A stretch of 64,000 bases of DNA from Ptiloglossa arizonensis (lineage: Eukaryota > Arthropoda > Insecta > Hymenoptera > Colletidae). The notes under the pieces were generated by a model. That model saw only the letters and a list, made by a program, of their open reading frames with translations. It was not told the DNA's origin and made no database searches. The stretch lies in contig NW_027478712.1 in assembly GCF_051014685.1 (NCBI RefSeq), positions 186,001 to 250,000 of the forward strand. The letters run 5' to 3'. The translations under genes were made by a program, and so were the position numbers. This document shows, one piece after another, positions 1 to 63,479 of this stretch (within the stretch, counting starts at the first letter, position 1; each line of letters starts with the position of its first letter).

Positions 1-28
1 GCGAGATATGGGAGTATGAAATTAAGGA

Positions 29-5304: not shown

Positions 5305-5324
5305 GCGAGATATGGCGAGATATG
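5305..5324. repeat. 10-bp microduplication inside a monomer
   Basis: GCGAGATATG occurs twice in direct tandem (5305-5314 and 5315-5324), lengthening one monomer. It falls within the CENP-B-box-like motif and changes the spacing there. Confidence 0.9.
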
Positions 5325-24319: not shown

Positions 24320-24335
24320 GTGTGTACCACACACC
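24320..24335. repeat. Small inverted duplication in one monomer
   Basis: Where other monomers read GTACACACACC, this one reads GTGTGTAC followed by CACACACC. The first 8 bases are the reverse complement of GTACACAC, so a short stretch has been copied in inverted orientation. Template switching during replication or repair would produce this. Confidence 0.7.
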
Positions 24336-27300: not shown

Positions 27301-27546
27301 AACCAATAACTACAAAGGCCTTGGGGAAAAATACACGTACCGTTGTAATCGGGCGAGTTTCTGCTTTCAGATGCAATAGGAAATTCTCGAGTTCGTCAAT
27401 CCGTTCGCGAGATATGGGAGTTTGAACTTAAGGAATGGTTGAGAAACCATCACAATTTTCGCAATTCTGATACTCGAAACCAGTAACTACCATGGCCTAG
27501 GGCAAAAATACACATACCGTTGTAATCGGGCGAGTTTCTGCTTTCA

Positions 27547-27550
27547 GATG
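27547..27550. repeat. Target-site duplication of element A, left (GATG)
   Basis: GATG precedes the 5' LTR and is repeated at 31450-31453. Removing the element and one GATG restores a normal monomer (CTTTCAGATGCAATAGG). Confidence 0.93.
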
Positions 27551-27874
27551 TGTAGTATCGGAGTTTCGGCGTCCGCTTAGGCTTGCTTCGAGCGTAGGCC
27601 TAAACAAGATAACGTGCGCGGTTGGACTCGAGTTGAAGTAAACATTTAGCGCCGATCGGCTCGCTAGCTTTCCTGGAAGGCACGAGTATCCTTTACAAAG
27701 GGTCTTGTGCGACGACCGAGCGTGAGAATGCATGGGGATGAAAGGAAATACATGTGGTTCGGAGAAAGTGAAGAGTGTTTAGAAAAGACGGGTGATTGGG
27801 ATGGCCGAGCGTGGCCGAATGTCTGAAGTGAGAGAGACTGAGGATTGGAATGAAAGAGAATGAATGGGAATGAC

Positions 27875-27880
27875 TATATA
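27875..27880 (+). promoter_or_regulatory. TATA-like box in element A LTR
   Basis: TATATA followed by a GC-rich GAGCGCGAG stretch lies near the middle of the LTR, where a U3 promoter is expected. An identical copy is at 31109-31114. The call rests on motif and position only. Confidence 0.45.
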
Positions 27881-27900
27881 GAGCGCGAGAAGAACGTAGG

Positions 27901-27950
27901 GACACAGTATGACGCAGTATGATACAGTATGATATAGTATGACAAAGTAT
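27901..27950. repeat. Five 10-bp tandem repeats in element A LTR
   Basis: Units GACACAGTAT, GACGCAGTAT, GATACAGTAT, GATATAGTAT and GACAAAGTAT share GA..(C/T/A)AGTAT at an exact 10-bp period, about one helical turn. They begin about 20 bp after the TATA-like box. The 3' LTR copy is at 31135-31184. Confidence 0.9.
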
Positions 27951-28133
27951 GACGACGAGAGTATGTCCGAAGAGTGTGTCGCGGACGGTATGACTAAAAA
28001 GACGATAAGACGAGACAACTAAAAGACGTATCCAGCGAAACTAACCACTGACACTACATCTAACACTATCATCATTCTAATATATAATATTATTAAATAT
28101 ACTTTAATATACCACATCAGAGCAATAGTTATT

Positions 28134-28152
28134 TGGGGGCTCGCACGGGGAT
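28134..28152 (+). other. Degenerate primer-binding-site copy inside the LTR
   Basis: TGGGGGCTCGCACGGGGAT closely resembles the real primer-binding site TGGGGGCTCGTCCGGGAT found 86 bp further on, and it is likewise preceded by ATT. The 3' LTR has the same copy at 31368-31386, so it belongs to the LTR proper. Confidence 0.8.
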
Positions 28153-28165
28153 AAATCATTCAAAA

Positions 28166-28186
28166 GGATCTCTCCTCCAGAGATCC
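28166..28186. repeat. Perfect hairpin near the LTR end
   Basis: GGATCTCT and AGAGATCC form an 8-bp stem around the 5-base loop CCTCC, within the probable R/U5 part. The 3' LTR copy is at 31400-31420. The role is unknown; a structured 5' leader or packaging element is possible. Confidence 0.75.
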
Positions 28187-28219
28187 AAGTGATAAGAGGA
28201 GAGAACGAAACAACAATTT

Positions 28220-28237
28220 TGGGGGCTCGTCCGGGAT
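28220..28237 (+). other. Primer-binding site, tRNA-Pro type (element A)
   Basis: TGGGGGCTCGTCCGGGAT is the 18-base sequence complementary to the 3' end of tRNA-Pro, as used by murine leukaemia virus and some retrotransposons. It lies 4 bases after the 5' LTR. Its last two bases are the first two of the ORF's first ATG. Confidence 0.9.
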
Positions 28238-30875
28238 GAATCAGACAGGTGCCGTTATGCAGGATAGTTTAGACGTAGTTCAGTGTGAAGGTGAAACGAC
28301 GAGAGTTACAAGGATGAGCGGCAAGACACGACGAAAAAGTGCCAGTGGTGAAAATATGTGTGACAATTCTGAAGTTGCTAAAATGAAGTTGGTAGAACTT
28401 CGAGCAGAATTGAAAAGACGAAAATTAAGAATCACTGGAAATAAAGACGAATTACGACGACGCTTGCAAGCTGCCTTGACGCTAGAAGAAGAAAGTGAAG
28501 ACGAAGATACGAGTGATCGTGACGAGGACGACGATGAAGAAGATGATGTGGTCAGAGTTGAAGAAGACGTTGACGACGGTGATAATGGAAGATCAGGACG
28601 TAATACACGCGGAAGGAGGAGACAGGTAAAATATGTACCTAGTTTTAAAGATGTTGAAGAGTCGCTGACAACGTTCAGCGGGGACGACAAGCGAAACATT
28701 AAACTTTGGATCAGCGATTTTGAGGAAACTGCCGATGTGTGTAAATGGACTGACGTTCAAATGATAATATACGCCAAAAGACTTTTAAGAGGTCCGGCAA
28801 AGCTGTTTGTTAATTACGAGAAATGTGGCCGAAGCTGGAAATGTTTGAAGACTGCTTTGAAATTGGAATTTGGTTATAAAGGCAGTAGCTACCAAATACA
28901 ACAAGAGCTGACGCAAAGAAGGAAGCGTAACGACGAATCGTATCAAGAATACATCTATCAGATGCTTGACATAGCCTCTCAAGCAGACATGGAGACTGAT
29001 GCTGTGATACGATACATAATCGACGGAATTCAAGACGAAGAGTATAACAAAGTCGTGTTGTACGGAGCCAGGAGCATTGGAGAGCTGAAGAAGAAATTCA
29101 TAATCTACGAGGAAATGAAGAACAGCATTAGGACGAAGACGAAGCGCGTGGAAGATAAAGTGCAGAAACCAGTGCGTGCTGTAAATGCGGAGACGGAGCG
29201 CATGGATGATGAAGTGCAGAGACCAGTGCGTGTTGTAAATGCGAAGACGAAGCGATGTTTTAGTTGTGGATTGCCAAATCATGTGAGTGCGAATTGTCCA
29301 ATGAAGGACAAAGGGGTAAAATGTTTCAAGTGCAACGAACACGGGCACGTTGCATCGAAGTGCTCGCAAAAGTTGAATGTGGAAAAGGAAGTTTGTAGTG
29401 TCGCACAGCTTCCTCGAGGAGAACTACACGAAAAGGTAAAGACAACGAAGCATGACTTAGTAACATTGATCGATACAAATAGCGATTTGTCTTTGATGCG
29501 GACGAATGAATGTGTGAAAATAGGCGCGGTTCGCGAAGTTTACAAAATAGATGTGCCGTATACCAAAGATTTTTCGAGTAGAAGTACTGTAGAAAATCCT
29601 GAGAGCGTATTGAATGCCGCGAATAAGTTTGAATTATCCATTGACTGGGACAAAGGTCAGTTTGTGCAATCAAAGATCGAGTACGTAGGGCGCATGGTTA
29701 AGAATGATAGTGTGCGTCCGTCGGAACAGAAAACTGATGTCGTTGTGAGATTCTCGAAATCAGAGAGTGTTGAAGCCGTTAAAAATATTCTGGGTTCGAT
29801 TAGTTGTTTTAGAATGTTTGTAAACCAGTACGCGATTATTCCAAGACCGTTAAAGAATTTATTACAGACGAACGTTAAATTAGAATTTGGTTTTAAAGGG
29901 GAACAAGCGCCGGTGCATTTGAGAATGGTATCGTCAAATGGGCCTGTGCCGGAGATTTGTAATGTATACGCCGATACGAAATCGAATAGAGATGCGTGCA
30001 TGTGTGTGAACAAGGGTGAGCGGAGTGTGACCACACGACTGCGCGCAGTGCAGCAAAAAGACATTGGACTAAAGAACATTGCCGAATTGGTGTGCCAAGG
30101 CAAAACGAATGATTGTTATGTGAAGGACGATTTATTGTTTGAAGTGACCAGTGAGCATAGGTTGATGAAACAGGACGCCTTCGTGAAGTGCACGTGGCCT
30201 TATGCCACGAAGACGACGAACGCCGCCAAAATTCTCAGTAGGCTGAGAAAAAGATCGATTGCATTTGGAAACCCGAGGAGGATCATTACGGATTATGGTA
30301 TTGTGAAAGCTAAAGGGCAGGTATCGCGGATTAACTTTATACCTCGGTTGACGAATTTGTTTGCGCCAAAACCGCGCGAATGGTGCAGGTACCTGGAGTG
30401 GGCCCAGCGATGTTTTAACGCTACGCCGTGTAGGAACTCAGGTAGGCTGCCGATTCAATTGCTGCTCGGAACGCACGTGAAGTTCAAAAGCGACCCGACG
30501 ACCAGGGAAACAATTAAAAATGAATGGATAGCCGTAGTTAAAAAAGATCGAGACAAATTCAGACGACGAACAAAAGAAAACATGCAGAAGGTGCAGCAGA
30601 CGTCCAGACGGAATTACGACGCAAAGACGAAGAGGGCGAAACGTTACGAGGAAGACGACCTCGTAGCTATCCGCAGGACACAGTTCGAACCAGGGATCAA
30701 TGACCTCAGTAATAGTGACTCAAGTGTGAGTGACTGCGAAAGCGTAAGACATCTGAGGGCAGATGTCAAAGCAGGATGGCCGAGTGTAGTATCGGATTTT
30801 CGGCGTCCGCTTAGGCTTGCTTCGAGCGTAGGCCTAAACAAGATAACGTGCGCGGTTGGACTCGAGTTGAAGTAA
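28236..30875 (+). CDS. SAP-Gag with degenerate protease/RT/integrase remnants (element A ORF)
   Basis: The 879-codon ORF would encode the element's structural protein followed by a collapsed Pol. Seen in order: SAP domain about residues 46-80; acidic tract 84-114; basic patch 120-131; Gag core about 135-300; two 18-residue repeats 301-336; CCHC knuckles at C341-C344-H349-C354 and C363-C366-H371-C376; a protease remnant with DTNS at 413-416 where DTGS is expected; an RT thumb-like segment about 464-550 with no YxDD palm; scraps of RNase H and linker; integrase pieces about 646-820 with one catalytic-type Asp (686) in a shortened core and Ser (697) where the catalytic Glu is expected; and a last 30 codons read from the 3' LTR. 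The tail is out of frame with element B's equivalent tail, showing an indel before the LTR. Gag functions look plausible; enzymatic Pol functions do not. The first ATG overlaps the primer-binding site, and Met8 (28257) or Met27 (28314) are alternative starts. Confidence 0.85.
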   Translation: MNQTGAVMQDSLDVVQCEGETTRVTRMSGKTRRKSASGENMCDNSEVAKMKLVELRAELKRRKLRITGNKDELRRRLQAALTLEEESEDEDTSDRDEDDDEEDDVVRVEEDVDDGDNGRSGRNTRGRRRQVKYVPSFKDVEESLTTFSGDDKRNIKLWISDFEETADVCKWTDVQMIIYAKRLLRGPAKLFVNYEKCGRSWKCLKTALKLEFGYKGSSYQIQQELTQRRKRNDESYQEYIYQMLDIASQADMETDAVIRYIIDGIQDEEYNKVVLYGARSIGELKKKFIIYEEMKNSIRTKTKRVEDKVQKPVRAVNAETERMDDEVQRPVRVVNAKTKRCFSCGLPNHVSANCPMKDKGVKCFKCNEHGHVASKCSQKLNVEKEVCSVAQLPRGELHEKVKTTKHDLVTLIDTNSDLSLMRTNECVKIGAVREVYKIDVPYTKDFSSRSTVENPESVLNAANKFELSIDWDKGQFVQSKIEYVGRMVKNDSVRPSEQKTDVVVRFSKSESVEAVKNILGSISCFRMFVNQYAIIPRPLKNLLQTNVKLEFGFKGEQAPVHLRMVSSNGPVPEICNVYADTKSNRDACMCVNKGERSVTTRLRAVQQKDIGLKNIAELVCQGKTNDCYVKDDLLFEVTSEHRLMKQDAFVKCTWPYATKTTNAAKILSRLRKRSIAFGNPRRIITDYGIVKAKGQVSRINFIPRLTNLFAPKPREWCRYLEWAQRCFNATPCRNSGRLPIQLLLGTHVKFKSDPTTRETIKNEWIAVVKKDRDKFRRRTKENMQKVQQTSRRNYDAKTKRAKRYEEDDLVAIRRTQFEPGINDLSNSDSSVSDCESVRHLRADVKAGWPSVVSDFRRPLRLASSVGLNKITCAVGLELK
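28371..28475 (+). other. SAP domain coding segment in element A
   Basis: Residues 46-80 show the SAP helix-turn-helix pattern: a first helix with LVELRAELKRR, a short hydrophobic turn with KLRITG, then NKDELRRRL. SAP domains are about 35 residues and bind DNA, often AT-rich scaffold-attachment DNA. The spacing of conserved Leu, the Gly and the K-x-E-L motif all fit. An acidic tract follows immediately. Confidence 0.85.
29136..29243 (+). repeat. 54-bp tandem duplication in Gag
   Basis: Residues 301-318 and 319-336 are two diverged copies of an 18-residue unit sharing VQ-x-PVR-x-VNA, just before the zinc knuckles. The duplication preserves the frame. Confidence 0.85.
29256..29363 (+). other. 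Two CCHC zinc knuckles (nucleocapsid) in element A
   Basis: Two CX2CX4HX4C motifs at residues 341-354 and 363-376 are separated by eight residues. This is the usual nucleic-acid-binding nucleocapsid end of Gag, and all eight zinc ligands are present. Confidence 0.95.
29457..29525 (+). other. Aspartic protease remnant, altered active site
   Basis: Residues 408-430 hold the LIDTNSDLSLM segment. The catalytic Asp is present, but Gly of the D-T/S-G triad is Asn, and the remainder of the roughly 100-residue fold is not recognisable before RT-like sequence begins. Confidence 0.7.
29625..29885 (+). other. Reverse transcriptase C-terminal (thumb) remnant
   Basis: Residues about 464-550 align in pattern with the end of Ty3/Gypsy RT: the I-E-Y-x-G-x-x-V segment, RPS-x-x-K-T, a conserved VK-x-ILG...CFR-F block, and a PL-x-x-LL segment. 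Fingers and palm, including the YxDD catalytic loop, are absent. Confidence 0.8.
29886..30170 (+). other. Degenerate RNase H and linker region
   Basis: Residues about 551-645 contain FGFKGEQA (RT/RNase H junction-like), a short VYADTKSN stretch reminiscent of the RNase H start, then a QQKD...LKNI linker of the kind seen before integrase. The intervening catalytic RNase H fold and the HHCC zinc domain are not present. Confidence 0.5.
30171..30695 (+). other. Integrase remnant, catalytic core broken
   Basis: Residues about 646-820 include an integrase core stretch (DAFVKCTW...FGNPRRIITDYG), then KGQVSRIN only about 10 residues later where the intact family has about 35 between the second Asp and the Glu. 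Ser stands at the catalytic Glu position. The following PREWCRYLEWAQ..FN and LVAIRRTQ segments are well conserved. The GPY/F motif itself, present in element B, is missing here. Confidence 0.75.
30772..30784 (+). other. Pre-3'-LTR conserved segment (plus-strand primer region), element A
   Basis: GCAGGATGGCCGA (30771-30783, followed by G) directly precedes the 3' LTR and recurs in element B in the same place. It sits where a polypurine tract is expected but is interrupted by pyrimidines. The role as plus-strand primer is inferred from position. Confidence 0.5.
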
Positions 30876-31449
30876 ACATTTAGCGCCGATCGGCTCGCTA
30901 GCTTTCCTGGAAGGCACGAGTATCCTTTACAAAGGGTCTTGTGCGACGACCGAGCGTGAGAATGCATGGGGATGAAAGGAAATACATGTGGTTCGGAGAA
31001 AGTGAAGAGTGTTTAGAAAAGACGGGTGATTGGGATGGCCGAGCGTGGCCGAATGTCTGAAGTGAGAGAGACTGAGGATTGGAATGAAAGAGAATGAATG
31101 GGAATGACTATATAGAGCGCGAGAAGAACGTAGGGACACAGTATGACGCAGTATGATACAGTATGATATAGTATGACAAAGTATGACGACGAGAGTATGT
31201 CCGAAGAGTGTGTCGCGGACGGTATGACTAAAAAGACGATAAGACGAGACAACTAAAAGACGTATCCAGCGAAACTAACCACTGACACTACATCTAACAC
31301 TATCATCATTCTAATATATAATATTATTAAATATACTTTAATATACCACATCAGAGCAATAGTTATTTGGGGGCTCGCACGGGGATAAATCATTCAAAAG
31401 GATCTCTCCTCCAGAGATCCAAGTGATAAGAGGAGAGAACGAAACAACA
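30785..31449 (+). repeat. Element A 3' LTR
   Basis: This is a direct repeat of 27551-28215. The element A ORF runs 91 bases into it before stopping at 30875. It ends GAAACAACA and is followed at once by the GATG target duplication. Confidence 0.95.
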
Positions 31450-31453
31450 GATG
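31450..31453. repeat. Target-site duplication of element A, right (GATG)
   Basis: This matches 27547-27550. The monomer resumes as CAATAGGAAATTC. Confidence 0.93.
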
Positions 31454-34400
31454 CAATAGGAAATTCTCGAGTTCGTCAATCCGTTCGCGAGATATGGAAG
31501 TTTGAAGTTAAGGAATGATTGAGAAACCATCAAAATTTTCGCAAGTCTGATACACGAAACCAATAACTGGAATTTCCTAGGGGAAAAGTGCACACACCAT
31601 TGTAATCGGGCGAGTTTCCAATTTCAGATGGAACAGGAATTTCTCGAGTTCGTCAATCCGTTCGCGAGATATGGGAGTTTGAAGTTAAGGAATGGTTGAG
31701 AAACCCTCAAAATTTTCGCAAGTCTGATACTCGAAACCAATAACTACAAAGGCCTAGGGGAAAAATACACATACCGTTGTAATCGGGCGAGTTTCTACTT
31801 TCACATGCAACAGGAATTTCTCGAGTTCGTCATTCCGTTCGCGAGATATGGGAGTTTGAAGTTAAGGAATGCTTGAGAAACCATCAAAATTTTCGCAAGT
31901 CTGATACCCGAAAGCAATAACTACAAAGGCCTAGGGGAAAAATGAACATACCGTTGTAATCGGGCGAGTTTCCAATTTCAGATGCAACAGGAATTTCTCG
32001 AGTTCGTCAATCCGTTCGCGAGATATGGGAGTTTGAGGTTAAGGAATGGTTGAGGAACCATCAAAATTTTCGCAAGTCTGATACTCGAAACCAATAACTA
32101 CAAAGGCCTAGGGGAAAAATACACATACCTTTGTAATCGGGCGAGTTTCACTTTCAGATGCAACAGGAATTTCTCGAGTTCGTCAATCCGTTCGCGAGAA
32201 ATGGAAGAATCAAGTTAAGGAATGCTTGAGAAACCATCAATTATTTTCGGTGGTCTGATACTCGAAACCAATAACTACAAAGGCCTTGGGGAAAAATACA
32301 CGTACCGTTGTAATCGGGCGAGTTTCTGCTTTCAGATGCAATAGGAAATTCTCGAGTTCGTCAATCCGTTCGCGAGATATGGGAGTTTGAAATTAAGGAA
32401 TGGTTGAGGAACCATCAAAATTTTCGCACGTCTGATACTCGAAACCAATAACTACAAAGGCCTAGGGGAAAAATGCACATACCTTTGTAATCGGGCGAGT
32501 TTCTGCTTTCAGATGCAACAGGAATTTCTCGAGTTCGTCATTCCGTTCGCGAGACATGGGAGTTTGAAGTTAAGGAATGGTTGAGAAACCATCAAAATTT
32601 TCGCAATTCTGATACTCGAAACCAATAACTGGAATGGCCTAGGGGAAAAGTACACACAAGCTTGTAATCGTGCGAGTTTCTGCTTTCAGATGCAACAGGA
32701 ATTTCTCGAGTTCGTCAATCCGTTCGCGAGATATGGGAGTTTGAAGTTAAGGAATGCTTGAGAAACCATCAAAATTTTCGCAAGTCTGATACTCGATACC
32801 AATAACTACAAAGGCTTAGGGGAAAAATGCACATACCTTTTTAATCGGGCGAGTTTCCACTTTCAGATGCAACAGGAATTTCTCGAGTTCGTCATTCCGT
32901 TCGCGAGACATGGGAGTTTGAAGCTAAGGAATGCTTGAGAAACCATCAAAATTTTCGCTGGTCTGAAACTCGAAACCAATAACTGGAATGACCTAGGGGA
33001 AAAGTACACACACCATTGTAATCATGCGAGTTTCTACTTTCAGATGCAACAGGAATTTCTCGAGTTCGTCATTCCGTTCGCGAGATATGGGAGTTTGAAG
33101 TTAAGGAATGCTTGAGAAACCATCAAAATTTTCGCAAGTCTGATACCCGAAAGCAATAACTACAAAGGACTAGGGGAAAAATGCACATACCTTTGTAATC
33201 GGGCGAGTTTCCAATTTCAGATGCAACAGGAATTTCTCGAGTTCGTCAATCCGTTCGCGAGATATGGGAGTTTGAAATTAAGGAATGGTTGAGGAACCAT
33301 CAAAATTTTCGCAAGTCTGATACTCGAAATCAATAACTACAAAGGCCTAGGGGAAAAATGCACATACCTTTGTAATCGGGCGAGTTTCTGCTTTCAGATG
33401 CAGCAGGAATTTCTCGAGTTCGTCATTCCGTTCGCGAGATATGGGAGTTACAAGTTATTGAATGCTTGAGAAACCATCAAAATTTTCGCAAGTCTGATAC
33501 TCGAAACCAATAACTACTATGGCCTAGGGCACAAATGCACATACCGTTGAAATCGGGCGAGTTTCTGCTTTCAGATTCAACAGGAATTTCTCGAGTTCGT
33601 TAATCCGTTCGTGAGATATGGGAGTTTGAAATTAAGGATAGGTTGAGAAACCATCAAAATTTTCGCAAGTGTGAAACTCGAAACCAATAACTACAAAGGC
33701 CTAGGGGAAAAATGCACATACCTTTGTAATCGGGCGAGTTTCCACTTTCAGATGCAACAGGAATTTCTCGAGTTCGTCAATCCGTTCGCGAGATATGGGA
33801 GTTACAAGTTATTGAATGCTTGAGAAACCATCAAAATTTTCGCAAGTCTGATACTCGAAACCAATAACAACTATGGCCTAGGGCAAAAATGCACACACCA
33901 TTGTATTCATGCGAGTTTCCACTTTCAGATGCAACAGGAATTTCTCGAGTTCGTCATTCCGTTCGCGAGACATGGGAGTTTGAAGTTAAGGAATGGTTGA
34001 GAAACCATCAAAATTTTCGCAATTCTGATACTCGAAACCAATAACTGGAATGGCCTAGGGGAAAAGTACACACACGCTTGTAATCGTGCGAGTTTCTGCT
34101 TTCAGAAGCAACAGGAATTTCTCGAGTGCGTCATTCCGTTCGCGAGATATGGAAGATTGAAGTTAAGGAATGATTGAGAAACCATCAAAATTTTCGCGTC
34201 TGATACTCGAAACCAATAACTACAAAGGCCTAGGGGAAAAATGCACATACCTTTGTAATCGGGCGAGTTTCCACTTTCAGATGCAACAGGAATTTCTCGA
34301 GTTCGTCAATCCGTTCGCGAGAAATGGGAGTTTGAAGTTAAGGAATGCTTGAGAAACCATCAAAATTTTCGCAAGTCTGATACCCGAAAGCAATAACTAC

Positions 34401-35839
34401 AAAGGCCTAGGGGAAAAATGCACATACCTTTGTAATCGGGCGAGTTTCCAATTTCAGATGCAACAGGAATTTCTCGAGTTCGTCAATCCGTTCGCGAGAT
34501 ATGGGAGTTTGAAATTAAGGAATGATTGAGGAACCATCAAAATTTTCGCAAGTCTGATACTCGAAACCAATAACTACAAAGGCCTAGGGGAAAAATGCAC
34601 ATACCTTTGTAATCGTGCGAGTTTCTGCTTTCAGAAGCAACAGGAATTTCTCGAGTTCGTCAATCCGTTCGCGAGATATGGGAGTTTGAAGTTAAGGAAT
34701 GCTTGAGAAACCATCAAAATTTTCGCAAGTCTGATACTCGAAAACAATAGCTACAAAGGCTTAGGGGAAAAATGCACATACCTTTGTAATCAGGCGAGTT
34801 TCCCCTTTCAGGTGCAACAGGAATTTCTTGAGTTCGTCATTCCGTTCGCGAGACATGGGAGTTTGAAGCTAAGGAATGCTTGAGAAACCATCAAAATTTT
34901 CGCTGGTCTGAAACTCGAAACCAATAACTGGAATGACCTAGGGGAAAAGTACACACACCATTGTATTCATGCGAGTTTCTACTTTCAGATGCAACAGGAA
35001 TTTCTCGAGTTCGTCAATCCGTTCGCGAGATATGGGAGTTTGAAGTTAAGGAATGCTTGAGAAACCATCAAAATTTTCGCGTCTGATACTCGAAACCAAT
35101 AACTACAAAGGCCTAGGGGAAAAATGCACATACCTTTGTAATCGGGCGAGTTTCCACTTTCAGATGCAACAGGAATTTCTCGAGTTCGTCAATCCGTTCG
35201 CGAGATATGGGAGTTTGAAGTTAAGGAATGCTTGAGAAACCATCAAAATTTTCGCAAGTCTGATACCCGAAAGCAATAACTACAAAGGCCTAGGGGAAAA
35301 ATGCACATACCGTTGAAATCGGGCGAGTTTCTGCTTTCAGATGCAACAGGAATTTCTCGAGTTCGTTAATCCGTTCGTGAGATATGGGAGTTACAAGTTA
35401 TTGAATGCTTGAGAAACCATCAAAATTTTCGCAAGTCTGATACTCGAAACCAATAACTACTATGGCCTAGGGCAAAAATGCACATACCGTTGAAATCGGG
35501 CGAGTTTCTGCTTTCAGATGCAACAGGAATTTCTCGAGTTCGTTAATCCGTTCGTGAGATATGGGAGTTTGATATTAAGGATAGGTTGAGAAACCATCAA
35601 AATTTTCGCAAGTCTGAAACTCGAAACCAATAACTACAAAGGCCTAGGGGAAAAATGCACATACCTTTGTAATCGGGCGAGTTTCCACTTTCAGATGCAA
35701 CAGGAATTTCTCGAGTGCGTCATTCCGTTCGCGAGATATGGAAGTTTGAAGTTAAGGAATGATTGAGAAACCATCAAAATTTTCGCAAATCTGATACTCG
35801 AAACCAATAACTACTATGGCCTAGGGCAAAAATGAACAT

Positions 35840-38800: not shown

Positions 38801-40259
38801 TACTCGAAACCAATAACTACTATGGCCTAGGGCAAAAATGAACATACCTTTGTAATCGGGCGAGTTTCCACTTTCAGATGCAACAGGAATTTCTCGAGTT
38901 CGTCATTCCGTTCGCGAGACATGGGCGTTTGAAGTTAAGGAATGCTTGAGAAACCATCAAAATTTTCGCTGTTCTGAAACTCGAAACCAATAACTGGAAT
39001 GACCTAGGAGAAAAGTACACACACCATTGTAATCATGCGAGTTTCTACTTTCAGATGCAACAGGAATTTCTCGAGTTCGTCATTCCGTTCGCGAGATATG
39101 GGAGTTTGAAGTTAAGGAATGGTTGAGAAACCATCAAAATTTTCGCAAGTTTGATTCTCGAAACCAATAACTACAAAGGCATAGGGGAAAAATGCACATA
39201 CCATTGTAATCGGGCGAGTTTCCACTTTCAGATGCAACAGGAATTTCTCGAGTTCGTCAATCCGTTCGCGAGATATGGGAGTTACAAGTTATTGAATGCT
39301 TGAGAAACCATCAAAATTTTCGCAAGTCTGATACTCGAAACCAATAACTACTATGGCCTAGGGCACAAATGCACATACCGTTGAAATCGGGCGAGTTTCT
39401 GCTTTCAGATTCAACAGGAATTTCTCGAGTTCGTTAATCCGTTCGTGAGATATGGGAGTTTGAAATTAAGGATAGGTTGAGAAACCATCAAAATTTGCGC
39501 AAGTCTGAAACTCGAAACCAATAACTACAAAGGCCTAGGGGAAAAATGCACATACCTTTGTAATCGGGCGAGTTTCCACTTTCAGATGCAACAGGAATTT
39601 CTCGAGTGCGTCATTCCGTTCGCGAGATATGGAAGTTTGAAGTTAAGGAATGATTGAGAAACCATCAAAATTTTCGCAAGTCTGATACTCGAAACCAATA
39701 ACTACTATGGCCTAGGGCAAAAATGAACATACCTTTGTAATCGGGCGAGTTTCCACTTTCAGATGCAACAGGAATTTCTCGAGTTCGTCATTCCGTTCGC
39801 GAGACATGGGAGTTTGAAGCTAAGGAATGCTTGAGAAACCATCAAAATTTTCGCTGGTCTGAAACTCGAAACCAATAACTGGAATGACCTAGGGGAAAAG
39901 TACACACACCATTGTATTCATGCGAGTTTCTACTTTCAGATGCAACAGGAATTTCTCGAGTTCGTTGTTCCGTTCGCGAGATATGGGAGTTTGAAGTTAA
40001 GGAATGCTTGAGAAACCATCAAAATTTTCGCTGGTCTGATACTCGAAACCAATAACTGGAATGACCAAGGGGAAAAGTGCACACACCATTGTAATCGGGC
40101 GAGTTTCTGCTTTCAGATGCAACAGGAATTTCTCGAGTGCGTCATTCCGTTCGCGAGATATGGAAGATTGAAGTTAAGGAATGATTGAGAAACCATCAAA
40201 ACTTTCGCGTCTGATACTCGAAACCAATAACTACAAAGGCCTAGGGGAAAAATGCACAT
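35840..40259. repeat. 25-monomer HOR unit, copy 1 (4420 bp)
   Basis: This segment recurs 4420 bp downstream with very few differences; I noted GTGAGATATGG near 36437 against GTGTGATATGG near 40858. Rare variants such as CTGTTCTGAAAC (38970 and 43390) and GCAAGTTTGATTC (39147 and 43567) appear in both. Its two halves (starting points 38060 and 40181, 2121 bp apart) are a more diverged 12-monomer echo. Borders are approximate. Confidence 0.85.
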
Positions 40260-43200
40260 ACCTTTGTAATCGGGCGAGTTTCCACTTTCAGATGCAACAG
40301 GAATTTCTCGAGTTCGTCATTCCGTTCGCGAGACATGGGCGTTTGAAGTTAAGGAATGCTTGAGAAACCATCAAAATTTTCGCTGGTCTGAAACTCGAAA
40401 CCAATAACTGGAATGACCTAGGAGAAAAGTACACACACCATTGTAATCATGCGAGTTTCTACTTTCAGATGCAACAGGAATTTCTCGAGTTCGTCATTCC
40501 GTTCGCGAGATATGGGAGTTTGAAGTTAAGGAATGGTTGAGAAACCATCAAAATTTTCGCAAGTCTGATTCTCGAAACCAATAACTACAAAGGCATAGGG
40601 GAAAAATGCACATACCATTGTAATCGGGCGAGTTTCCACTTTCAGATGCAACAGGAATTTCTCGAGTTCGTCAATCCGTTCGCGAGATATGGGAGTTACA
40701 AGTTATTGAATGCTTGAGAAACCATCAAAATTTTCGCAAGTCTGATACTCGAAACCAATAACTACTATGGCCTAGGGCACAAATGCACATACCGTTGAAA
40801 TCGGGCGAGTTTCTGCTTTCAGATTCAACAGGAATTTCTCGAGTTCGTTAATCCGTTCGTGTGATATGGGAGTTTGAAATTAAGGATAGGTTGAGAAACC
40901 ATCAAAATTTTCGCAAGTCTGAAACTCGAAACCAATAACTACAAAGGCCTAGGGGAAAAATGCACATACCTTTGTAATCGGGCGAGTTTCCACTTTCAGA
41001 TGCAACAGGAATTTCTCGAGTGCGTCATTCCGTTCGCGAGATATGGAAGTTTGAAGTTAAGGAATGATTGAGAAACCATCAAAATTTTCGCAAATCTGAT
41101 ACTCGAAACCAATAACTACTATGGCCTAGGGCAAAAATGAACATACCTTTGTAATCGGGCGAGTTTCCACTTTCAGATGCAACAGGAATTTCTCGAGTTC
41201 GTCATTCCGTTCGCGAGACATGGGAGTTTGAAGCTAAGGAATGCTTGAGAAACCATCAAAATTTTCGCTGGTCTGAAACTCGAAACCAATAACTGGAATG
41301 ACCTAGGGGAAAAGTACACACACCATTGTAATCATGCGAGTTTCTACTTTCAGATGCAACAGGAATTTCTCGAGTTCGTCATTCCGTTCGCGAGATATGG
41401 GAGTTTGAAGTTAAGGAATGGTTGAGAAACCATCAAAATTTTCGCAAGTCTGATTCTCGAAACCAATAACTACAAAGGCATAGGGGAAAAATGCACATAC
41501 CATTGTAATCGGGCGAGTTTCCACTTTCAGATGCAACAGGAATTTCTCGAGTTCGTCAATCCGTTCGCGAGATATGGGAGTTACAAGTTATTGAATGCTT
41601 GAGAAACCATCAAAATTTTCGCAAGTCTGATACTCGAAACCAATAACAACTATGGCCTAGGGCAAAAATGCACATACCTTTGTAATCGGGCGAGTTTCCA
41701 CTTTCAGATGCAACAGGAATTTCTCGAGTTCGTCATTCCGTTCGCGAGACATGGGAGTTTGAAGTTAAGGAATGGTTGAGAAACCATCAAAATTTTCGCA
41801 ATTCTGATACTCGAAACCAATAACTGGAATGGCCTAGGGGAAAAGTACACACACGCTTGTAATCGTGCGAGTTTCTGCTTTCAGAAGCAACAGGAATTTC
41901 TCGAGTTCGTCAATCCGTTCGCGAGATATGGGAGTTTGAAGTTAAGGAATGCTTGAGAAACCATCAAAATTTTCGCAAGTCTGATACTCGAAACCAATAA
42001 CTACAAAGGCTTAGGGGAAAAATGCACATACCTTTGTAATCAGGCGAGTTTCCACTTTCAGGTGCAACAGGAATTTCTCGAGTTCGTCATTCCGTTCGCG
42101 AGACATGGGAGTTTGAAGCTAAGGAATGCTTGAGAAACCATCAAAATTTTCGCTGGTCTGAAACTCGAAACCAATAACTGGAATGACCTAGGGGAAAAGT
42201 ACACACACCATTGTATTCATGCGAGTTTCTACTTTCAGATGCAACAGGAATTTCTCGAGTTCGTTGTTCCGTTCGCGAGATATGGGAGTTTGAAGTTAAG
42301 GAATGCTTGAGAAACCATCAAAATTTTCGCTGGTCTGATACTCGAAACCAATAACTGGAATGACCAAGGGGAAAAGTGCACACACCATTGTAATCGGGCG
42401 AGTTTCTGCTTTCAGATGCAACAGGAATTTCTCGAGTGCGTCATTCCGTTCGCGAGATATGGAAGATTGAAGTTAAGGAATGATTGAGAAACCATCAAAA
42501 TTTTCGCGTCTGATACTCGAAACCAATAACTACAAAGGCCTAGGGGAAAAATGCACATACCTTTGTAATCGGGCGAGTTTCCACTTTCAGATGCAACAGG
42601 AATTTCTCGAGTTCGTCAATCCGTTCGCGAGATATGGGAGTTTGAAGTTAAGGAATGCTTGAGAAACCACAAAATTTTCGCAAGTCTGATACCCGAAAGC
42701 AATAACTACAAAGGCCTAGGGGAAAAATGCACATACCTTTGTAATCGTGCGAGTTTCTGCTTTCAGATGCAACAGGAATTTCTCGAGTTCGTTAATCCGT
42801 TCGTGAGATATGGGAGTTACAAGTTATTGAATGCTTGAGAAACCATCAAAATTTTCGCAAGTCTGATACTCGAAACCAATAACTACTATGGCCTAGGGCA
42901 AAAATGCACATACCGTTGAAATCGGGCGAGTTTCTGCTTTCAGATGCAACAGGAATTTCTCGAGTTCGTTAATCCGTTCGTGAGATATGGGAGTTTGAAA
43001 TTAAGGATAGGTTGAGAAACCATCAAAATTTTCGCAAGTCTGAAACTCGAAACCAATAACTACAAAGGCCTAGGGGAAAAATGCACATACCTTTGTAATC
43101 GGGCGAGTTTCCACTTTCAGATGCAACAGGAATTTCTCGAGTGCGTCATTCCGTTCGCGAGATATGGAAGTTTGAAGTTAAGGAATGATTGAGAAACCAT

Positions 43201-44738
43201 CAAAATTTTCGCAAATCTGATACTCGAAACCAATAACTACTATGGCCTAGGGCAAAAATGAACATACCTTTGTAATCGGGCGAGTTTCCACTTTCAGATG
43301 CAACAGGAATTTCTCGAGTTCGTCATTCCGTTCGCGAGACATGGGCGTTTGAAGTTAAGGAATGCTTGAGAAACCATCAAAATTTTCGCTGTTCTGAAAC
43401 TCGAAACCAATAACTGGAATGACCTAGGAGAAAAGTACACACACCATTGTAATCATGCGAGTTTCTACTTTCAGATGCAACAGGAATTTCTCGAGTTCGT
43501 CATTCCGTTCGCGAGATATGGGAGTTTGAAGTTAAGGAATGGTTGAGAAACCATCAAAATTTTCGCAAGTTTGATTCTCGAAACCAATAACTACAAAGGC
43601 ATAGGGGAAAAATGCACATACCATTGTAATCGGGCGAGTTTCCACTTTCAGATGCAACAGGAATTTCTCGAGTTCGTCAATCCGTTCGCGAGATATGGGA
43701 GTTACAAGTTATTGAATGCTTGAGAAACCATCAAAATTTTCGCAAGTCTGATACTCGAAACCAATAACTACTATGGCCTAGGGCACAAATGCACATACCG
43801 TTGAAATCGGGCGAGTTTCTGCTTTCAGATTCAACAGGAATTTCTCGAGTTCGTTAATCCGTTCGTGAGATATGGGAGTTTGAAATTAAGGATAGGTTGA
43901 GAAACCATCAAAATTTGCGCAAGTCTGAAACTCGAAACCAATAACTACAAAGGCCTAGGGGAAAAATGCACATACCTTTGTAATCGGGCGAGTTTCCACT
44001 TTCAGATGCAACAGGAATTTCTCGAGTGCGTCATTCCGTTCGCGAGATATGGAAGTTTGAAGTTAAGGAATGATTGAGAAACCATCAAAATTTTCGCAAG
44101 TCTGATACTCGAAACCAATAACTACTATGGCCTAGGGCAAAAATGAACATACCTTTGTAATCGGGCGAGTTTCCACTTTCAGATGCAACAGGAATTTCTC
44201 GAGTTCGTCATTCCGTTCGCGAGACATGGGAGTTTGAAGCTAAGGAATGCTTGAGAAACCATCAAAATTTTCGCTGGTCTGAAACTCGAAACCAATAACT
44301 GGAATGACCTAGGGGAAAAGTACACACACCATTGTATTCATGCGAGTTTCTACTTTCAGATGCAACAGGAATTTCTCGAGTTCGTTGTTCCGTTCGCGAG
44401 ATATGGGAGTTTGAAGTTAAGGAATGCTTGAGAAACCATCAAAATTTTCGCTGGTCTGATACTCGAAACCAATAACTGGAATGACCAAGGGGAAAAGTGC
44501 ACACACCATTGTAATCGGGCGAGTTTCTGCTTTCAGATGCAACAGGAATTTCTCGAGTGCGTCATTCCGTTCGCGAGATATGGAAGATTGAAGTTAAGGA
44601 ATGATTGAGAAACCATCAAAACTTTCGCGTCTGATACTCGAAACCAATAACTACAAAGGCCTAGGGGAAAAATGCACATACCTTTGTAATCGGGCGAGTT
44701 TCCACTTTCAGATGCAACAGGAATTTCTCGAGTTCGTC
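40260..44738. repeat. 25-monomer HOR unit, copy 2
   Basis: This is a near-perfect tandem copy of the preceding 4420-bp unit. Identity breaks at about 44738, where GTCAATCCG replaces GTCATTCCG. Confidence 0.85.
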
Positions 44739-45379
44739 AATCCGTTCGCGAGATATGGGAGTTTGAAGTTAAGGAATGCTTGAGAAACCACAAAATTTTC
44801 GCAAGTCTGATACCCGAAAGCAATAACTACAAAGGCCTAGGGGAAAAATGCACATACCTTTGTAATCGTGCGAGTTTCTGCTTTCAGAAGCAACAGGAAT
44901 TTCTCGAGTTCGTCAATCCGTTCGCGAGATATGGGAGTTTGAAGTTAAGGAATGCTTGAGAAACCATCAAAATTTTCGCAAGTCTGATACTCGAAACCAA
45001 TAACTACAAAGGCTTAGGGGAAAAATGCACATACCTTTGTAATCAGGCGAGTTTCCCCTTTCAGGTGCAACAGGAATTTCTTGAGTTCGTCATTCCGTTC
45101 GCGAGACATGGGAGTTTGAAGCTAAGGAATGCTTGAGAAACCATCAAAATTTTCGCTGGTCTGAAACTCGAAACCAATAACTGGAATGACCTAGGGGAAA
45201 AGTACACACACCATTGTATTCATGCGAGTTTCTACTTTCAGATGCAACAGGAATTTCTCGAGTTCGTCGTTCCGTTCGCGAGATATGGGAGTTTGAAGTT
45301 AAGGAATGCTTGAGAAACCATCAAAATTTTCGCTGGTCTGATACTCGAAACCAATAACTGGAATGACCAAGGGGAAAAG

Positions 45380-46483
45380 TGCACATACCGTTGAAATCGG
45401 GCGAGTTTCTGCTTTCAGATGCAACAGGAATTTCTCGAGTTCGTTAATCCGTTCGTGAGATATGGGAGTTTGAAATTAAGGATAGGTTGAGAAACCATCA
45501 AAATTTTCGCAAGTCTGAAACTCGAAACCAATAACTACAAAGGCCTAGGGGAAAAATGCACATACCTTTGTAATCGGGCGAGTTTCCACTTTCAGATGCA
45601 ACAGGAATTTCTCGAGTGCGTCATTCCGTTCGCGAGATATGGAAGTTTGAAGTTAAGGAATGATTGAGAAACCATCAAAATTTTCGCAAATCTGATACTC
45701 GAAACCAATAACTACTATGGCCTAGGGCAAAAATGAACATACCTTTGTAATCGGGCGAGTTTCCACTTTCAGATGCAACAGGAATTTCTCGAGTTCGTCA
45801 TTCCGTTCGCGAGACATGGGCGTTTGAAGCTAAGGAATGCTTGAGAAACCATCAAAATTTTCGCTGGTCTGAAACTCGAAACCAATAACTGGAATGACCT
45901 AGGAGAAAAGTACACACACCATTGTAATCATGCGAGTTTCTACTTTCAGATGCAACAGGAATTTCTCGAGTTCGTCATTCCGTTCGCGAGATATGGGAGT
46001 TTGAAGTTAAGGAATGGTTGAGAAAACATCAAAATTTTCGCAAGTCTGATTCTCGAAACCAATAACTACAAAGGCATAGGGGAAAAATGCACATACCATT
46101 GTAATCGGGCGAGTTTCCACTTTCAGATGCAACAGGAATTTCTCGAGTTCGTCAATCCGTTCGCGAGATATGGGAGTTACAAGTTATTGAATGCTTGAGA
46201 CACCATCAAAATTTTCGCAAGTCTGATACTCGAAACCAATAACTACTATGGCCTAGGGCAAAAATGCACATACCGTTGAAATCGGGCGAGTTTCTGCTTT
46301 CTGATGCAACAGGAATTTCTCGAGTTCGTCAATCCGTTCGCGAGATATGGGTGTTTTAAGTTAAGGAATGGTTGAGAAACCTTCAAAATTTTCGCTGGTC
46401 TGATACTCGAAACCAATAACTGGAATGGCCTAGGGGAAAAATACACATACCGCTGTAATCGGGCGAGTTTCTGCTGTCAGATG
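45380..46483. repeat. Block duplicated at ~52067-53170, left of element B
   Basis: This block matches 52067-53170 (offset 6687 including element B, 5300 bp or 30 monomers without it). The match continues after element B from 47871 to about 48147 against 53171 to about 53447. A further related copy lies near 55400-55730. Confidence 0.85.
46480..46483. repeat. Target-site duplication of element B, left (GATG)
   Basis: GATG before the 5' LTR is repeated at 47867-47870. It is the same four monomer bases as in element A. Confidence 0.95.
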
Positions 46484-46847
46484 TGTAGGGACGAGTTTTG
46501 CGCGAGCGAAATACCGAAGTTTTTTCGATTGAGCGAGCGACTGTTTCGGTGGGTCGACGGGTCATTGGAAGCCGGTGCGAAAGACAAAGGCGGTGTGTTG
46601 TATTCTAACCAGCGACCGATACGGACGTGAGTCGACCGGTATCGAGTAAAAGTTTTTAAAAGGAGTTTTTGAGAAAACGTGTGTGTGTTCCGCGGTGCGA
46701 GCGGGTGTGACTTTTCCTTTTTCTTGTACGCGTCGTGACCTTGCGCAGACCCTATATTTCCTTCTGTAATCTACAGGGAATATATTATTATAGTAGAGGC
46801 ATAAATATAAATCTTCTAAATAGAATAAATAAATTTGCATTCCTACA
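46484..46847 (+). repeat. Element B 5' LTR
   Basis: The 364-bp direct repeat has its partner at 47503-47866 (offset 1019), and I find no differences. AATAAA at 46824-46829 near its 3' end could be a polyadenylation signal, and TATATTT lies at 46753-46759. Apart from the TGTAG start and CA end it does not resemble element A's LTR. Confidence 0.96.
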
Positions 46848-46852
46848 AATTT

Positions 46853-46870
46853 TGGGGGCTCGTCCGGGAT
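46853..46870 (+). other. Primer-binding site, tRNA-Pro type (element B)
   Basis: This is the same 18 bases TGGGGGCTCGTCCGGGAT as element A, five bases after the 5' LTR. Confidence 0.92.
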
Positions 46871-47039
46871 CGCGCGAGGCATCACGAAATTTGGCGTCGA
46901 AAACAGGGAAAATTAATTATAAAATTATAAAGTAGTTTTTGTGCGTTTCGAGAACATTCAGCGGACGTTTGCGAGTGTGTCGGGCGGCCGAAAAAAAAAA
47001 AAACAAAGAGTAGTGCGCGCGTCGTAAAGAAAGAAAGCG
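46871..47039 (+). other. Element B leader
   Basis: The 169 bp between the primer-binding site and the ATG are non-coding. They include an A-rich run (13 A's from about 46990) and purine-rich sequence just before the start codon. A packaging signal would be expected here, but none can be identified by eye. Confidence 0.6.
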
Positions 47040-47507
47040 ATGAAAGATTTGAATAAGTATACGGTCGCGTCGTTAAAAGAACTCTTAGCGACGCACGGTC
47101 TATTGACCATGGGCACGAAAGCCGAACTCGTGGCGCGAGTGCAAGAAGCCGATCCAGAGGGAACGTGGCTGATAGATGAGTGTACCGATGCAGGGGGTGA
47201 CATTGGAGCCTCGTATGCGGGTAGAGCTTACCGCGAGGGCGAACTGGTTGCTATTAAACGAACGCAGAGAGGACCTGGTCTTAAAGTATCGCATAAATAT
47301 TTTGGACCATACGAGGTCATTCGTACTCTCCGTAACCAGCGATATCAGGTGCGTAAAGTTGGCACCGGAGAGGGACCTCAAGAGACTTCAACCGCAGTCG
47401 AATATATGAAGTTGTGGACTGACAGCACAGATGACGAATTTTCGGACGAAGACGACGAAGTCGGCGACATTCGAGGGCGAATGTCAACGCAGGATGGCCG
47501 ATTGTAG
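47040..47507 (+). CDS. SAP domain fused to integrase C-terminal GPY/F domain (element B ORF)
   Basis: The 155-residue protein has a SAP domain at about residues 5-38 (VASLKELLATHGL, MGTKAELVARV), a linker of about 25 residues, an integrase C-terminal domain at about 64-108 (ELVAIKRTQRGPGLK, then KYFGPYEV and a QVRKVG strand), and a tail with the acidic stretch TDSTDDEFSDEDDEV at 127-141. ELVAIKRTQ..PG corresponds to LVAIRRTQFEPG at residues 808-820 of element A, so both ORFs derive from the same family; the SAP end is the Gag start and the GPY/F end is the Pol end. Everything between was lost in frame. The stop codon TAG is formed by the first bases of the 3' LTR. GPY/F domains contribute to integrase multimerisation and DNA binding. 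The product could be a two-part DNA-binding protein, but translation is unproven. Confidence 0.8.
   Translation: MKDLNKYTVASLKELLATHGLLTMGTKAELVARVQEADPEGTWLIDECTDAGGDIGASYAGRAYREGELVAIKRTQRGPGLKVSHKYFGPYEVIRTLRNQRYQVRKVGTGEGPQETSTAVEYMKLWTDSTDDEFSDEDDEVGDIRGRMSTQDGRL
47052..47153 (+). other. SAP domain coding segment in element B
   Basis: Residues 5-38 follow the SAP pattern: helix with conserved Leu, G-L-x-x-x-G turn, K-x-E-L and a second helix. It is clearly diverged from element A's SAP at residue level, so the two share a fold rather than a recent copy. Confidence 0.85.
47229..47363 (+). other. GPY/F domain coding segment in element B
   Basis: Residues 64-108 contain the F-GPY core at 88-91 with the expected upstream GELVAIKR strand and downstream R-Y-Q-V-R-K strand. 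The GPY/F module is typical of the integrase C-terminus of Ty3/Gypsy elements and gammaretroviruses. Confidence 0.85.
47490..47502 (+). other. Pre-3'-LTR conserved segment, element B
   Basis: GCAGGATGGCCGA followed by T directly precedes the 3' LTR, matching the segment before element A's 3' LTR. Here it also encodes residues QDGR at the end of the ORF. Confidence 0.55.
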
Positions 47508-47866
47508 GGACGAGTTTTGCGCGAGCGAAATACCGAAGTTTTTTCGATTGAGCGAGCGACTGTTTCGGTGGGTCGACGGGTCATTGGAAGCCGGTGCGAA
47601 AGACAAAGGCGGTGTGTTGTATTCTAACCAGCGACCGATACGGACGTGAGTCGACCGGTATCGAGTAAAAGTTTTTAAAAGGAGTTTTTGAGAAAACGTG
47701 TGTGTGTTCCGCGGTGCGAGCGGGTGTGACTTTTCCTTTTTCTTGTACGCGTCGTGACCTTGCGCAGACCCTATATTTCCTTCTGTAATCTACAGGGAAT
47801 ATATTATTATAGTAGAGGCATAAATATAAATCTTCTAAATAGAATAAATAAATTTGCATTCCTACA
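47503..47866 (+). repeat. Element B 3' LTR
   Basis: This is identical by eye to 46484-46847. It supplies the ORF's stop codon at 47505-47507. AATAAA is at 47843-47848. Confidence 0.96.
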
Positions 47867-47870
47867 GATG
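47867..47870. repeat. Target-site duplication of element B, right (GATG)
   Basis: This matches 46480-46483; the monomer resumes as CAACAGGAATTTC. Confidence 0.95.
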
Positions 47871-53166: not shown

Positions 53167-53170
53167 GATG
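53167..53170. other. Empty paralogous target site for element B
   Basis: The sequence around this GATG matches both flanks of element B (CTGCTGTCA on the left, CAACAGGAATTTCTCGAG on the right, then the rare CATAATTATCGC variant), but with one GATG and no insertion. A second, slightly more diverged empty copy is at 55645-55648. Confidence 0.88.
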
Positions 53171-58685: not shown

Positions 58686-58702
58686 GTTCGCGAGATACGG
58701 GA
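58686..58702 (+). promoter_or_regulatory. CENP-B-box core, perfect 9/9 match
   Basis: GTTCGCGAGATACGGGA fits NTTCGNNNNANNCGGGN at all nine fixed positions. It differs from the usual monomer by TGGG to CGGG, that is CpG in place of TpG. It lies in the diverged right part of the array. Confidence 0.6.
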
Positions 58703-58862
58703 GTTTGAAATTATGGAATGGTTGAGAAACCTTCAAAATTTTCGCTGGTCTGATACTCGAAACCAATAACTACTATGGCCTAGGGCAAAAATGCACATAC
58801 CGTTGAAATCGGGCGAGTTTCTGCTTTCAGATGCAACAGGAATTTCTCGAGTTCGTCAATCC

Positions 58863-58879
58863 GTTCGCGAGATACGGGA
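58863..58879 (+). promoter_or_regulatory. CENP-B-box core, perfect 9/9 match
   Basis: This is the same 17 bases as the copy exactly 177 bp upstream, in the adjacent and nearly identical monomer. Confidence 0.6.
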
Positions 58880-61693: not shown

Positions 61694-61710
61694 GTTCGCG
61701 AGATACGGGA
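61694..61710 (+). promoter_or_regulatory. CENP-B-box core, perfect 9/9 match
   Basis: GTTCGCGAGATACGGGA again, in an otherwise different monomer type from the 58.7-kb pair, so it is probably not just a local duplicate of it. Confidence 0.6.
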
Positions 61711-63462: not shown

Positions 63463-63479
63463 GTTCGCGGGATACGGGT
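63463..63479 (+). promoter_or_regulatory. CENP-B-box core, perfect 9/9 match, variant spacer
   Basis: GTTCGCGGGATACGGGT matches all nine fixed positions. It differs from the other perfect copies only at N positions. Confidence 0.6.

What the first reader, a model, noticed from the sequence alone, without database searches (positions are those of the whole stretch)
27547..47870. Two related LTR elements inserted at the identical nucleotide of the satellite monomer, same orientation, same GATG duplication
Element A (27551-31449) and element B (46484-47866) are different insertions with unrelated LTR bodies, yet both split the monomer after CAGATG, both duplicate GATG and both read in the monomer's direction. 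If insertion were random in a 177-bp monomer and in orientation, a second hit matching the first has a chance of about 1 in 354. This suggests a retrotransposon family with real target-site selection inside a satellite. Most targeted LTR elements select chromatin states or tRNA-gene flanks rather than one base of a satellite.
Basis: partly seen in the sequence, partly recalled or inferred. Interest (0 to 1): 0.88.

Follow-up and report, generated by a model that had tools for sequence, protein, structure and literature searches.

The report
Retrotransposon hot spots within satellite DNA
In an insect-like genome, two related retrotransposon families have inserted six separate times, in both directions, at one base of a 177-base satellite repeat and four times at a second base, probably because their integrase prefers a short AT-rich palindrome that only a few places in each repeat offer and likely because the repeat's packaging exposes two of them.

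Summary
Elements A (27551-31449) and B (46484-47866) both follow CAGATG of the 177-bp monomer, both duplicate GATG, and their flanks are no more alike than random array positions, so they are separate insertions. A genome-wide check changes the reading. Of 13 satellite insertions of the two families, taken from lists blind to phase, 6 are at GATG (4 plus, 2 minus), 4 at a second site 28 bp upstream (GTTG/ATTG, 2 plus, 2 minus) and 3 elsewhere. Orientation is not fixed. The families are not satellite-specific: 13 of 51 junction rows lie in a satellite estimated at 17-31% of the assembly. The 38 rows outside it define a palindromic target, W-N-A-[N-W-W-N]-T-N-W. Both hot spots are among 12 of 177 phases that fit it. 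But the motif alone (3-6 flanking bases) predicts 0.4-5% of hits at GATG, against 6 of 13 seen (4 of 11 without the window), while its best site (phase 85) was hit once. I infer integrase preference plus phased chromatin; the chromatin part is untested. Array duplication is excluded for A versus B. Interpretation partly supported.

The parts
1..27550 (+). 177-bp satellite array, left part (monomer read as CAGATGCAACAGG...)
   Evidence: Tandem Repeats Finder; cyclic alignment of about 332 monomers, mean 93.7% identity to consensus
27547..27550 (+). GATG target-site duplication, left copy, element A
27551..31449 (+). Element A: internally deleted Ty3/gypsy-type LTR retrotransposon, 3,899 bp
27551..28215 (+). 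Element A 5' LTR (665 bp, TGTAG...ACA)
28220..28237 (+). Element A primer-binding site TGGGGGCTCGTCCGGGAT (proline tRNA type, from memory)
28236..30875 (+). Element A open frame, 879 aa: SAP domain, Gag part and zinc knuckles, then pieces of pol joined in frame; runs into the 3' LTR
   Evidence: aligns to full-length relatives P0002, P0005, P0006 in three separate blocks
30748..30767 (+). 8-bp stem hairpin GACATCTG-AGGG-CAGATGTC before the 3' LTR of element A
30772..30784 (+). Conserved CAGGATGGCCGAG directly before the 3' LTR, in place of a polypurine tract
30785..31449 (+). Element A 3' LTR
31450..31453 (+). GATG target-site duplication, right copy, element A
31450..46483 (+). 177-bp satellite array, middle part
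46480..46483 (+). GATG target-site duplication, left copy, element B
46484..47866 (+). Element B: short deletion derivative of a related family, 1,383 bp
46484..46847 (+). Element B 5' LTR (364 bp)
46853..46870 (+). Element B primer-binding site, identical to that of A
47040..47507 (+). Element B open frame, 155 aa: SAP domain joined to the C-terminal tail of integrase/pol
   Evidence: its tail reads the same as the end of the open integrase frame of the C191 copy
47466..47485 (+). 8-bp stem hairpin GACATTCG-AGGG-CGAATGTC before the 3' LTR of element B (covaries with that of A)
47490..47502 (+). Conserved CAGGATGGCCGAT directly before the 3' LTR of element B
47503..47866 (+). Element B 3' LTR
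47867..47870 (+). GATG target-site duplication, right copy, element B
47867..64000 (+). 177-bp satellite array, right part

Best explanation
Two related Ty3/gypsy-type retrotransposon families have inserted six times, in both orientations, at one base of a 177-bp satellite monomer and four times at a second base, probably because their integrase prefers a short AT-rich palindrome that only a few monomer positions offer and likely because the array's phased chromatin exposes two of those positions. Shown: the shared sites, target duplications and orientations, the unlike flanks of the insertions, and the target motif W-N-A-[N-W-W-N]-T-N-W from copies outside the satellite. Inferred: that one integrase type, supplied by long copies, moves the deleted copies A and B; that the motif reflects the integrase; and that nucleosome phasing adds the excess that the motif does not explain. 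The families integrate outside the satellite too. They hit the satellite about as often as its estimated size predicts, and the near-identical monomers turn an ordinary short preference into base-exact repetition.
For: Thirteen A/B insertions in the satellite, judged independent by family, orientation, element length and flanks, and all found in lists blind to phase: phase 2 (GATG) 6, phase 151 (GTTG/ATTG) 4, and one each at phases 49, 61 and 85. Both hot spots are used in both orientations and by both families. Outside the satellite 38 of 38 junction rows have WW at the centre of the 4-bp duplication; W stands 3 bp outside it on 57 of 60 sides (p 2e-6 against the local AT content), and A just outside it on 39 of 60. 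Both hot spots are among the 12 of 177 consensus phases that pass the combined rule. Two of the three other hits lie in variant monomers whose change makes a TA-centred site (GTAG at phase 49, ATAT at phase 85), which supports sequence choice. The motif model with 3-6 flanking bases ranks phase 85 first, 151 third to fifth and 2 tenth. Extra factor: GATG use exceeds the motif prediction, also without the two window copies (4 of 11, P 3e-5 to 1.3e-3 for predicted shares of 1.8-4.8%). Satellite share: A 7 of 26 rows, A and B together 13 of 51, against an estimated 16.5-31% of the assembly. The long B copy at C191 sits at the same GATG and has an open integrase frame with no chromodomain hit.
Against: The motif model (3-6 flanking bases, all settings tried) puts 12-45% of hits at phase 85, which was hit once, and only 0.4-5% at GATG; with no or two flanking bases GATG falls to rank 61 or 33. 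So the motif alone fails, and the chromatin step is an inference without data. Of four satellite insertions of two other LTR families found without regard to phase, each read on one side only, two (copia) fall at phases 149 and 160, near the hot spots, and two (an unclassified family) at about 56 and 98, outside; a simple exposed-linker model is not established. A crude rotational nucleosome score does not single out one dyad. Young B copies (LTR at least 99% identical) may favour the satellite: 6 of 10, P 0.055 at a 31% share and 0.002 at 16.5%.
Confidence: 0.55

Rival explanations
1. Motif only: the integrase reads DNA sequence or bendability, chromatin plays no part, and my 38-row matrix is too crude to rank GATG correctly.
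For: Both hot spots pass the 12-of-177 rule, and hits in variant monomers track new TA-centred sites. In Drosophila, target motifs of LTR families are palindromes that reach up to 3 bp beyond the duplication (PMC3276498, section 12 read in full).
Against: Under the matrices tried (flank 3-6) GATG gets 0.4-5% of predicted hits; P(at least 6 of 13) is 1e-11 to 2e-5. Even with equal weight on the 12 eligible phases a maximum of 6 or more has P 0.004.
Confidence: 0.27
2. Dedicated satellite targeting: a family whose integrase is guided to this satellite and to one base of it.
For: Young B copies 6 of 10 in the satellite; 10 of 13 satellite hits on two bases.
Against: 38 of 51 junction rows lie outside the satellite. 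A: 7 of 26, about the satellite's estimated genome share. No chromodomain hit in the C191 integrase piece or in two full-length relatives. Both orientations are used, and so is a second site.
Confidence: 0.08
3. Survival bias: insertions occur at many phases, but array turnover or selection keeps those at certain phases.
For: Of the older B copies (LTR under 94% identical) whose junction was read, 0 of 15 are in the satellite, so satellite insertions may be lost with time.
Against: The window copies are young (LTR differences 0 of 364 and 1 of 665) and the other young copies have LTRs close to theirs, leaving little time for phase-dependent loss. I know of no reason why loss should depend on phase.
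Confidence: 0.06
4. One insertion copied by array duplication, with later exchange of the element.
For: Segmental copies do exist elsewhere (C94/C136 and C24/C56 share flanks and were counted once each).
Against: LTRs of A and B are unrelated. Flanks of A and B over 5 monomers each side are 0.900 identical against 0.902 for random array pairs. The other GATG copies differ in orientation, length or flanking monomers.
Confidence: 0.01

Closest known systems
Palindromic target-site motifs of Drosophila melanogaster Ty3/gypsy families (412, gypsy and Idefix clades; PMC3276498)
   Same: AT-rich core motif spanning the duplication (ATAT or TATA) and palindromic motifs reaching up to 3 bp beyond it (passages; section 12 read in full).
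   Different: Here the motif W-N-A-[NWWN]-T-N-W was measured in another lineage, and in a satellite the hits collapse onto two bases more than the motif predicts.
Tal1 of Arabidopsis lyrata, integrating into centromeric satellite through CENH3 chromatin
   Same: LTR element landing in a centromeric satellite (passage read in the meeting report PMC12859917; the primary paper is not held).
   Different: Tal1 is targeted to centromere chromatin as a region. The families here are mostly outside the satellite; what stands out is the base-exact phase. Whether this satellite is centromeric is unknown.
Nested plant LTR retrotransposons with palindrome and nucleosome preference (PMC6911290)
   Same: Target choice depends weakly on palindromes and on predicted nucleosome position (abstract, sections 8 and 9 read).
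   Different: Statistical trends over many sites, not repeated use of one base in a tandem repeat.
SAP-domain Ty3/gypsy elements of bees and beetles (for example P0002, annotated in Anthophora plagiata; P0004, Agrilus planipennis)
   Same: SAP and Gag parts with 46-47% identity to element A's first 430 residues; P0002 has gypsy-order pol.
   Different: The window copies are internally deleted; insertion sites of those relatives were not examined.

Membership tests
Ty3/gypsy LTR retrotransposon | Two LTRs with TG...CA ends and a short target duplication | tested here: met
   TGTAG...ACA, 665 and 364 bp, GATG both sides
Ty3/gypsy LTR retrotransposon | Primer-binding site after the 5' LTR | tested here: met
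   TGGGGGCTCGTCCGGGAT in A and B; its tRNA was not searched for
Ty3/gypsy LTR retrotransposon | Polypurine tract before the 3' LTR | tested here: not met
   In A and B the 3' LTR is preceded by CAGGATGGCCGA[N]; the pattern recurs at 43 places, which were found with that very pattern, so this shows recurrence, not universality
Ty3/gypsy LTR retrotransposon | Gag with zinc knuckle | tested here: met
   A: zf-CCHC E 1.3e-7; Gag model itself just below its cut-off (23.0 of 24.1 bits); absent from the deleted copy B
Ty3/gypsy LTR retrotransposon | pol order protease-RT-RNaseH-integrase | tested here: met
   Met in full-length relatives P0002 and P0046. A keeps pieces in that order; B keeps only the integrase tail
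Satellite-targeted (centrophilic) LTR family | Insertions strongly enriched in the satellite over its genomic share | tested here: not met
   A 7 of 26 rows against an estimated 16.5-31%. Young B 6 of 10 is suggestive only
Satellite-targeted (centrophilic) LTR family | Chromodomain in integrase (CRM/chromovirus type) | tested here: not met
   Pfam scan of the C191 integrase piece and of P0046, P0002: no chromodomain
LTR family with palindromic target motif | Symmetric base preference in and around the duplication at sites outside the satellite | tested here: met
   WW centre 38 of 38, W at 3 bp outside 57 of 60 sides

The most novel reading that the evidence does not exclude
The satellite is a natural base-resolution integration assay: its phased nucleosomes leave about 30 bp per 177-bp monomer open, and integrases of unrelated LTR superfamilies strike fixed bases at the two edges of that gap (phases 151 and 2, 28 bp apart), so retrotransposon insertions record nucleosome phasing on heterochromatic repeats.
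Probability: 0.25. Interest if true: 0.68.

Novelty: new variant of a known kind. Interest (0 to 1): 0.46.

Why it matters
If the chromatin part holds, hundreds of thousands of near-identical monomers let one separate what an integrase reads in DNA from what chromatin permits, at single-base resolution in a natural genome. Even without it, the case warns that two base-identical insertions in a satellite need not mean a dedicated targeting system. Practical use: repeat annotators can expect recurrent junctions in satellites and should not merge them as duplicates.

Tried and rejected
Rejected: array duplication for A versus B, fixed orientation, satellite-only family, 'unrelated' elements (their internal ends are related).

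Led nowhere: scans of viral contigs for relatives of the A and B proteins and of bacterial/archaeal and viral contigs for the satellite found nothing; Rfam had no match in 27400-48000; the rotational nucleosome score was indecisive; Pfam and PDB had no match for the copia fragment. A search at the GATG site for any element beginning with TG gave 87 places: 4 were already known, 38 were read (36 monomer variants, 2 insertions of other LTR families) and 45 were not read. Those two insertions were found by position, so they are not counted as evidence of preference.

Rows left out of the motif: junctions where the LTR edge was not found in the stretch (L057, L071, L074, L110, L116, L117), right ends of L052, L054, L055, the single third-family copy L050, and segmental duplicates. 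Two rows kept (A on C4, L108 and L109) share a left flank and may be one event. C239 and C475 have only the left junction read, C4:121867 only the right (its left junction carries a small deletion). The genome searches score only the best candidates: 40 of 653 for LTR A, 40 of 148 for LTR B, 40 of 769 for the copia family, 40 of 126 for the other family; of the last two lists 20 stretches each were read. favours one site and one orientation by design.

Paper searches: ten, seen as listings; passages or sections of PMC3276498, PMC6911290, PMC12859917 and PMC12933667 (passages) were read. None showed a report of recurrent base-identical LTR insertion in a satellite monomer; the library is open-access only, so this is weak.
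Full report
What is there. The window is part of contig C342 of a 998.7-Mb assembly. It is a 177-bp satellite array, about 332 monomers with mean 93.7% identity to consensus, interrupted twice. Element A (27551-31449) has 665-bp LTRs with one difference; element B (46484-47866) has identical 364-bp LTRs. Both sit after CAGATG with GATG repeated on both sides. Flanks of A and B over five monomers each side are 0.900 identical, the mean of random array pairs being 0.902, so they are not copies of one insertion event.

What the elements are. A codes for an 879-aa open frame with a SAP domain (E 3e-8), zinc knuckles and a Gag match just below Pfam's cut-off, followed by pol remnants; it aligns to full-length relatives in three separate blocks, in order (Gag and start of protease, part of RT/RNase H, part of integrase, domains). 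B keeps only a SAP domain joined to the integrase tail. The LTRs are unrelated, but the primer-binding region is identical over 22 bases and the end of the internal part is 31 of 36 alike, with an 8-bp hairpin whose stem covaries between A and B. Named relatives include a Ty3-type Gag-Pol polyprotein of a bee and proteins of beetles, ants and other insects, so the host is probably an insect; it is not named. Paired LTR hits show long B copies of about 5.27 kb; one at C191, at the same GATG, has an open integrase frame in the 1.2 kb read. I infer that such copies supply the integrase for A and B.

Genome-wide test. Lists made without regard to phase (LTR A, 40 of 653 candidates scored; 3'-LTR motif, 43 places; LTR B, 40 of 148; A 5'-LTR end with primer-binding site, 35 places), read with loci and short junction stretches, gave 51 usable junction rows: 38 outside the satellite and 13 in it. 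In the satellite, by phase of the target duplication: GATG, phase 2: A plus (window), B plus (window), B plus (C191), B plus (C4:121867), B minus (C94/C136, counted once), A minus (C239). GTTG or ATTG, phase 151: A minus (C475), A minus (C402), B plus (C360), A plus (C37 solo LTR). Others: A plus GTAG (C24/C56, counted once, phase 49), A plus TAAG (C68 solo LTR, phase 61), B plus ATAT (C202, phase 85). In 10 of 13 the duplication was read on both sides; C239 and C475 have only the left, C4 only the right. Orientation is 9 plus, 4 minus (two-sided P 0.27).

The target motif. In the 38 rows outside the satellite the central two bases of the duplication are always A or T (38 of 38). Three bases outside it, A or T stands on 57 of 60 sides (p 2e-6 against a local AT content of 0.70), and A just outside it on 39 of 60. 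Of 177 consensus phases, 62 have the WW centre, 22 also the outer W on both sides, and 12 also the A before or T after the duplication; both hot spots are among the 12. Of 22 outside rows read on both sides, 20 pass the 22-phase rule and 18 the 12-phase rule. Such palindromic motifs reaching up to 3 bp beyond the duplication were found for the Drosophila LTR families studied in PMC3276498 (section 12). Two of the three hits at other phases are in variant monomers whose change creates a TA centre; the third (TAAG, phase 61) is among the 22 but not the 12.

What the motif does not explain. A matrix from the 38 rows, run over the real monomers with 3-6 flanking bases, gives phase 85 the top or second share (12-45%), phase 151 2-11% and phase 2 0.4-5%, over all subsets and backgrounds tried; with no or two flanking bases phase 2 falls to rank 61 or 33. 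Observed: 1, 4 and 6 of 13. Leaving out the two window copies that prompted the question, 4 of 11 at phase 2 has P 3e-5 to 1.3e-3, and 8 of 11 at the two sites P 2e-8 to 1.5e-5, for predicted phase-2 shares of 1.8-4.8%. So something besides the local motif is likely. The two sites lie 28 bp apart, close to the linker expected for a 177-bp repeat (177 minus 147, from general knowledge), which suggests phased nucleosomes; no chromatin data are available here.

Other LTR families. A position-keyed search found a copia element (C18; copia by its relatives) and an unclassified LTR family (C12) with 5-bp AGATG duplications at the same place. Read without regard to phase, 20 stretches per family and one side only, the copia family has two further satellite events (phases 149 and 160; each seen in two copies with the same flank, counted once) and the other family two (about 56 and 98). 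The former fit an exposed segment, the latter do not.

Is it satellite targeting? An exact satellite 20-mer occurs 932,696 times, about 165 Mb if once per monomer; scaled by its frequency in the window (177 of 332) about 310 Mb. A has 7 of 26 rows in the satellite, A and B together 13 of 51, about the satellite's share. Young B copies (LTR at least 99%) are 6 of 10, older ones that were read 0 of 15; the first may hint at a preference, the second at loss of old copies.

Verdict. The claim of one orientation and of a satellite-dedicated family is not borne out. I read it as an ordinary short integrase preference made visible by a tandem repeat, plus a likely chromatin contribution that can be tested directly.

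Noticed in passing
whole assembly; window 1-64000: The 177-bp satellite is enormous: 932,696 exact copies of one 20-mer, roughly 17-31% of the 998.7-Mb assembly by extrapolation.
   Followed up: partly
30748-30784 and 47466-47502: Instead of a polypurine tract the 3' LTRs are preceded by a covarying hairpin and CAGGATGGCCGA[N]; a third family (L050) has a further stem variant. This could be an unusual plus-strand priming signal.
   Followed up: partly
28236-30875: Element A keeps one 879-aa open frame across internal deletions of pol, as if the deleted protein were still under constraint or the deletions were recent.
   Followed up: no
47040-47507; L128: Element B is a SAP domain fused to the integrase tail (155 aa). 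A second B deletion class has LTR starts 2,967-2,970 bp apart in five places (C5, C8, C10, C202, C360).
   Followed up: partly
L130 1-7520 (C342:166001-173520): The satellite array begins near C342:173.5 kb; the DNA to its left has no open frame of 150 aa or more.
   Followed up: no
C18:229955-234579 and C12:770659-775299: A copia element and an unclassified LTR element carry 5-bp AGATG duplications at the same monomer place as A and B.
   Followed up: partly
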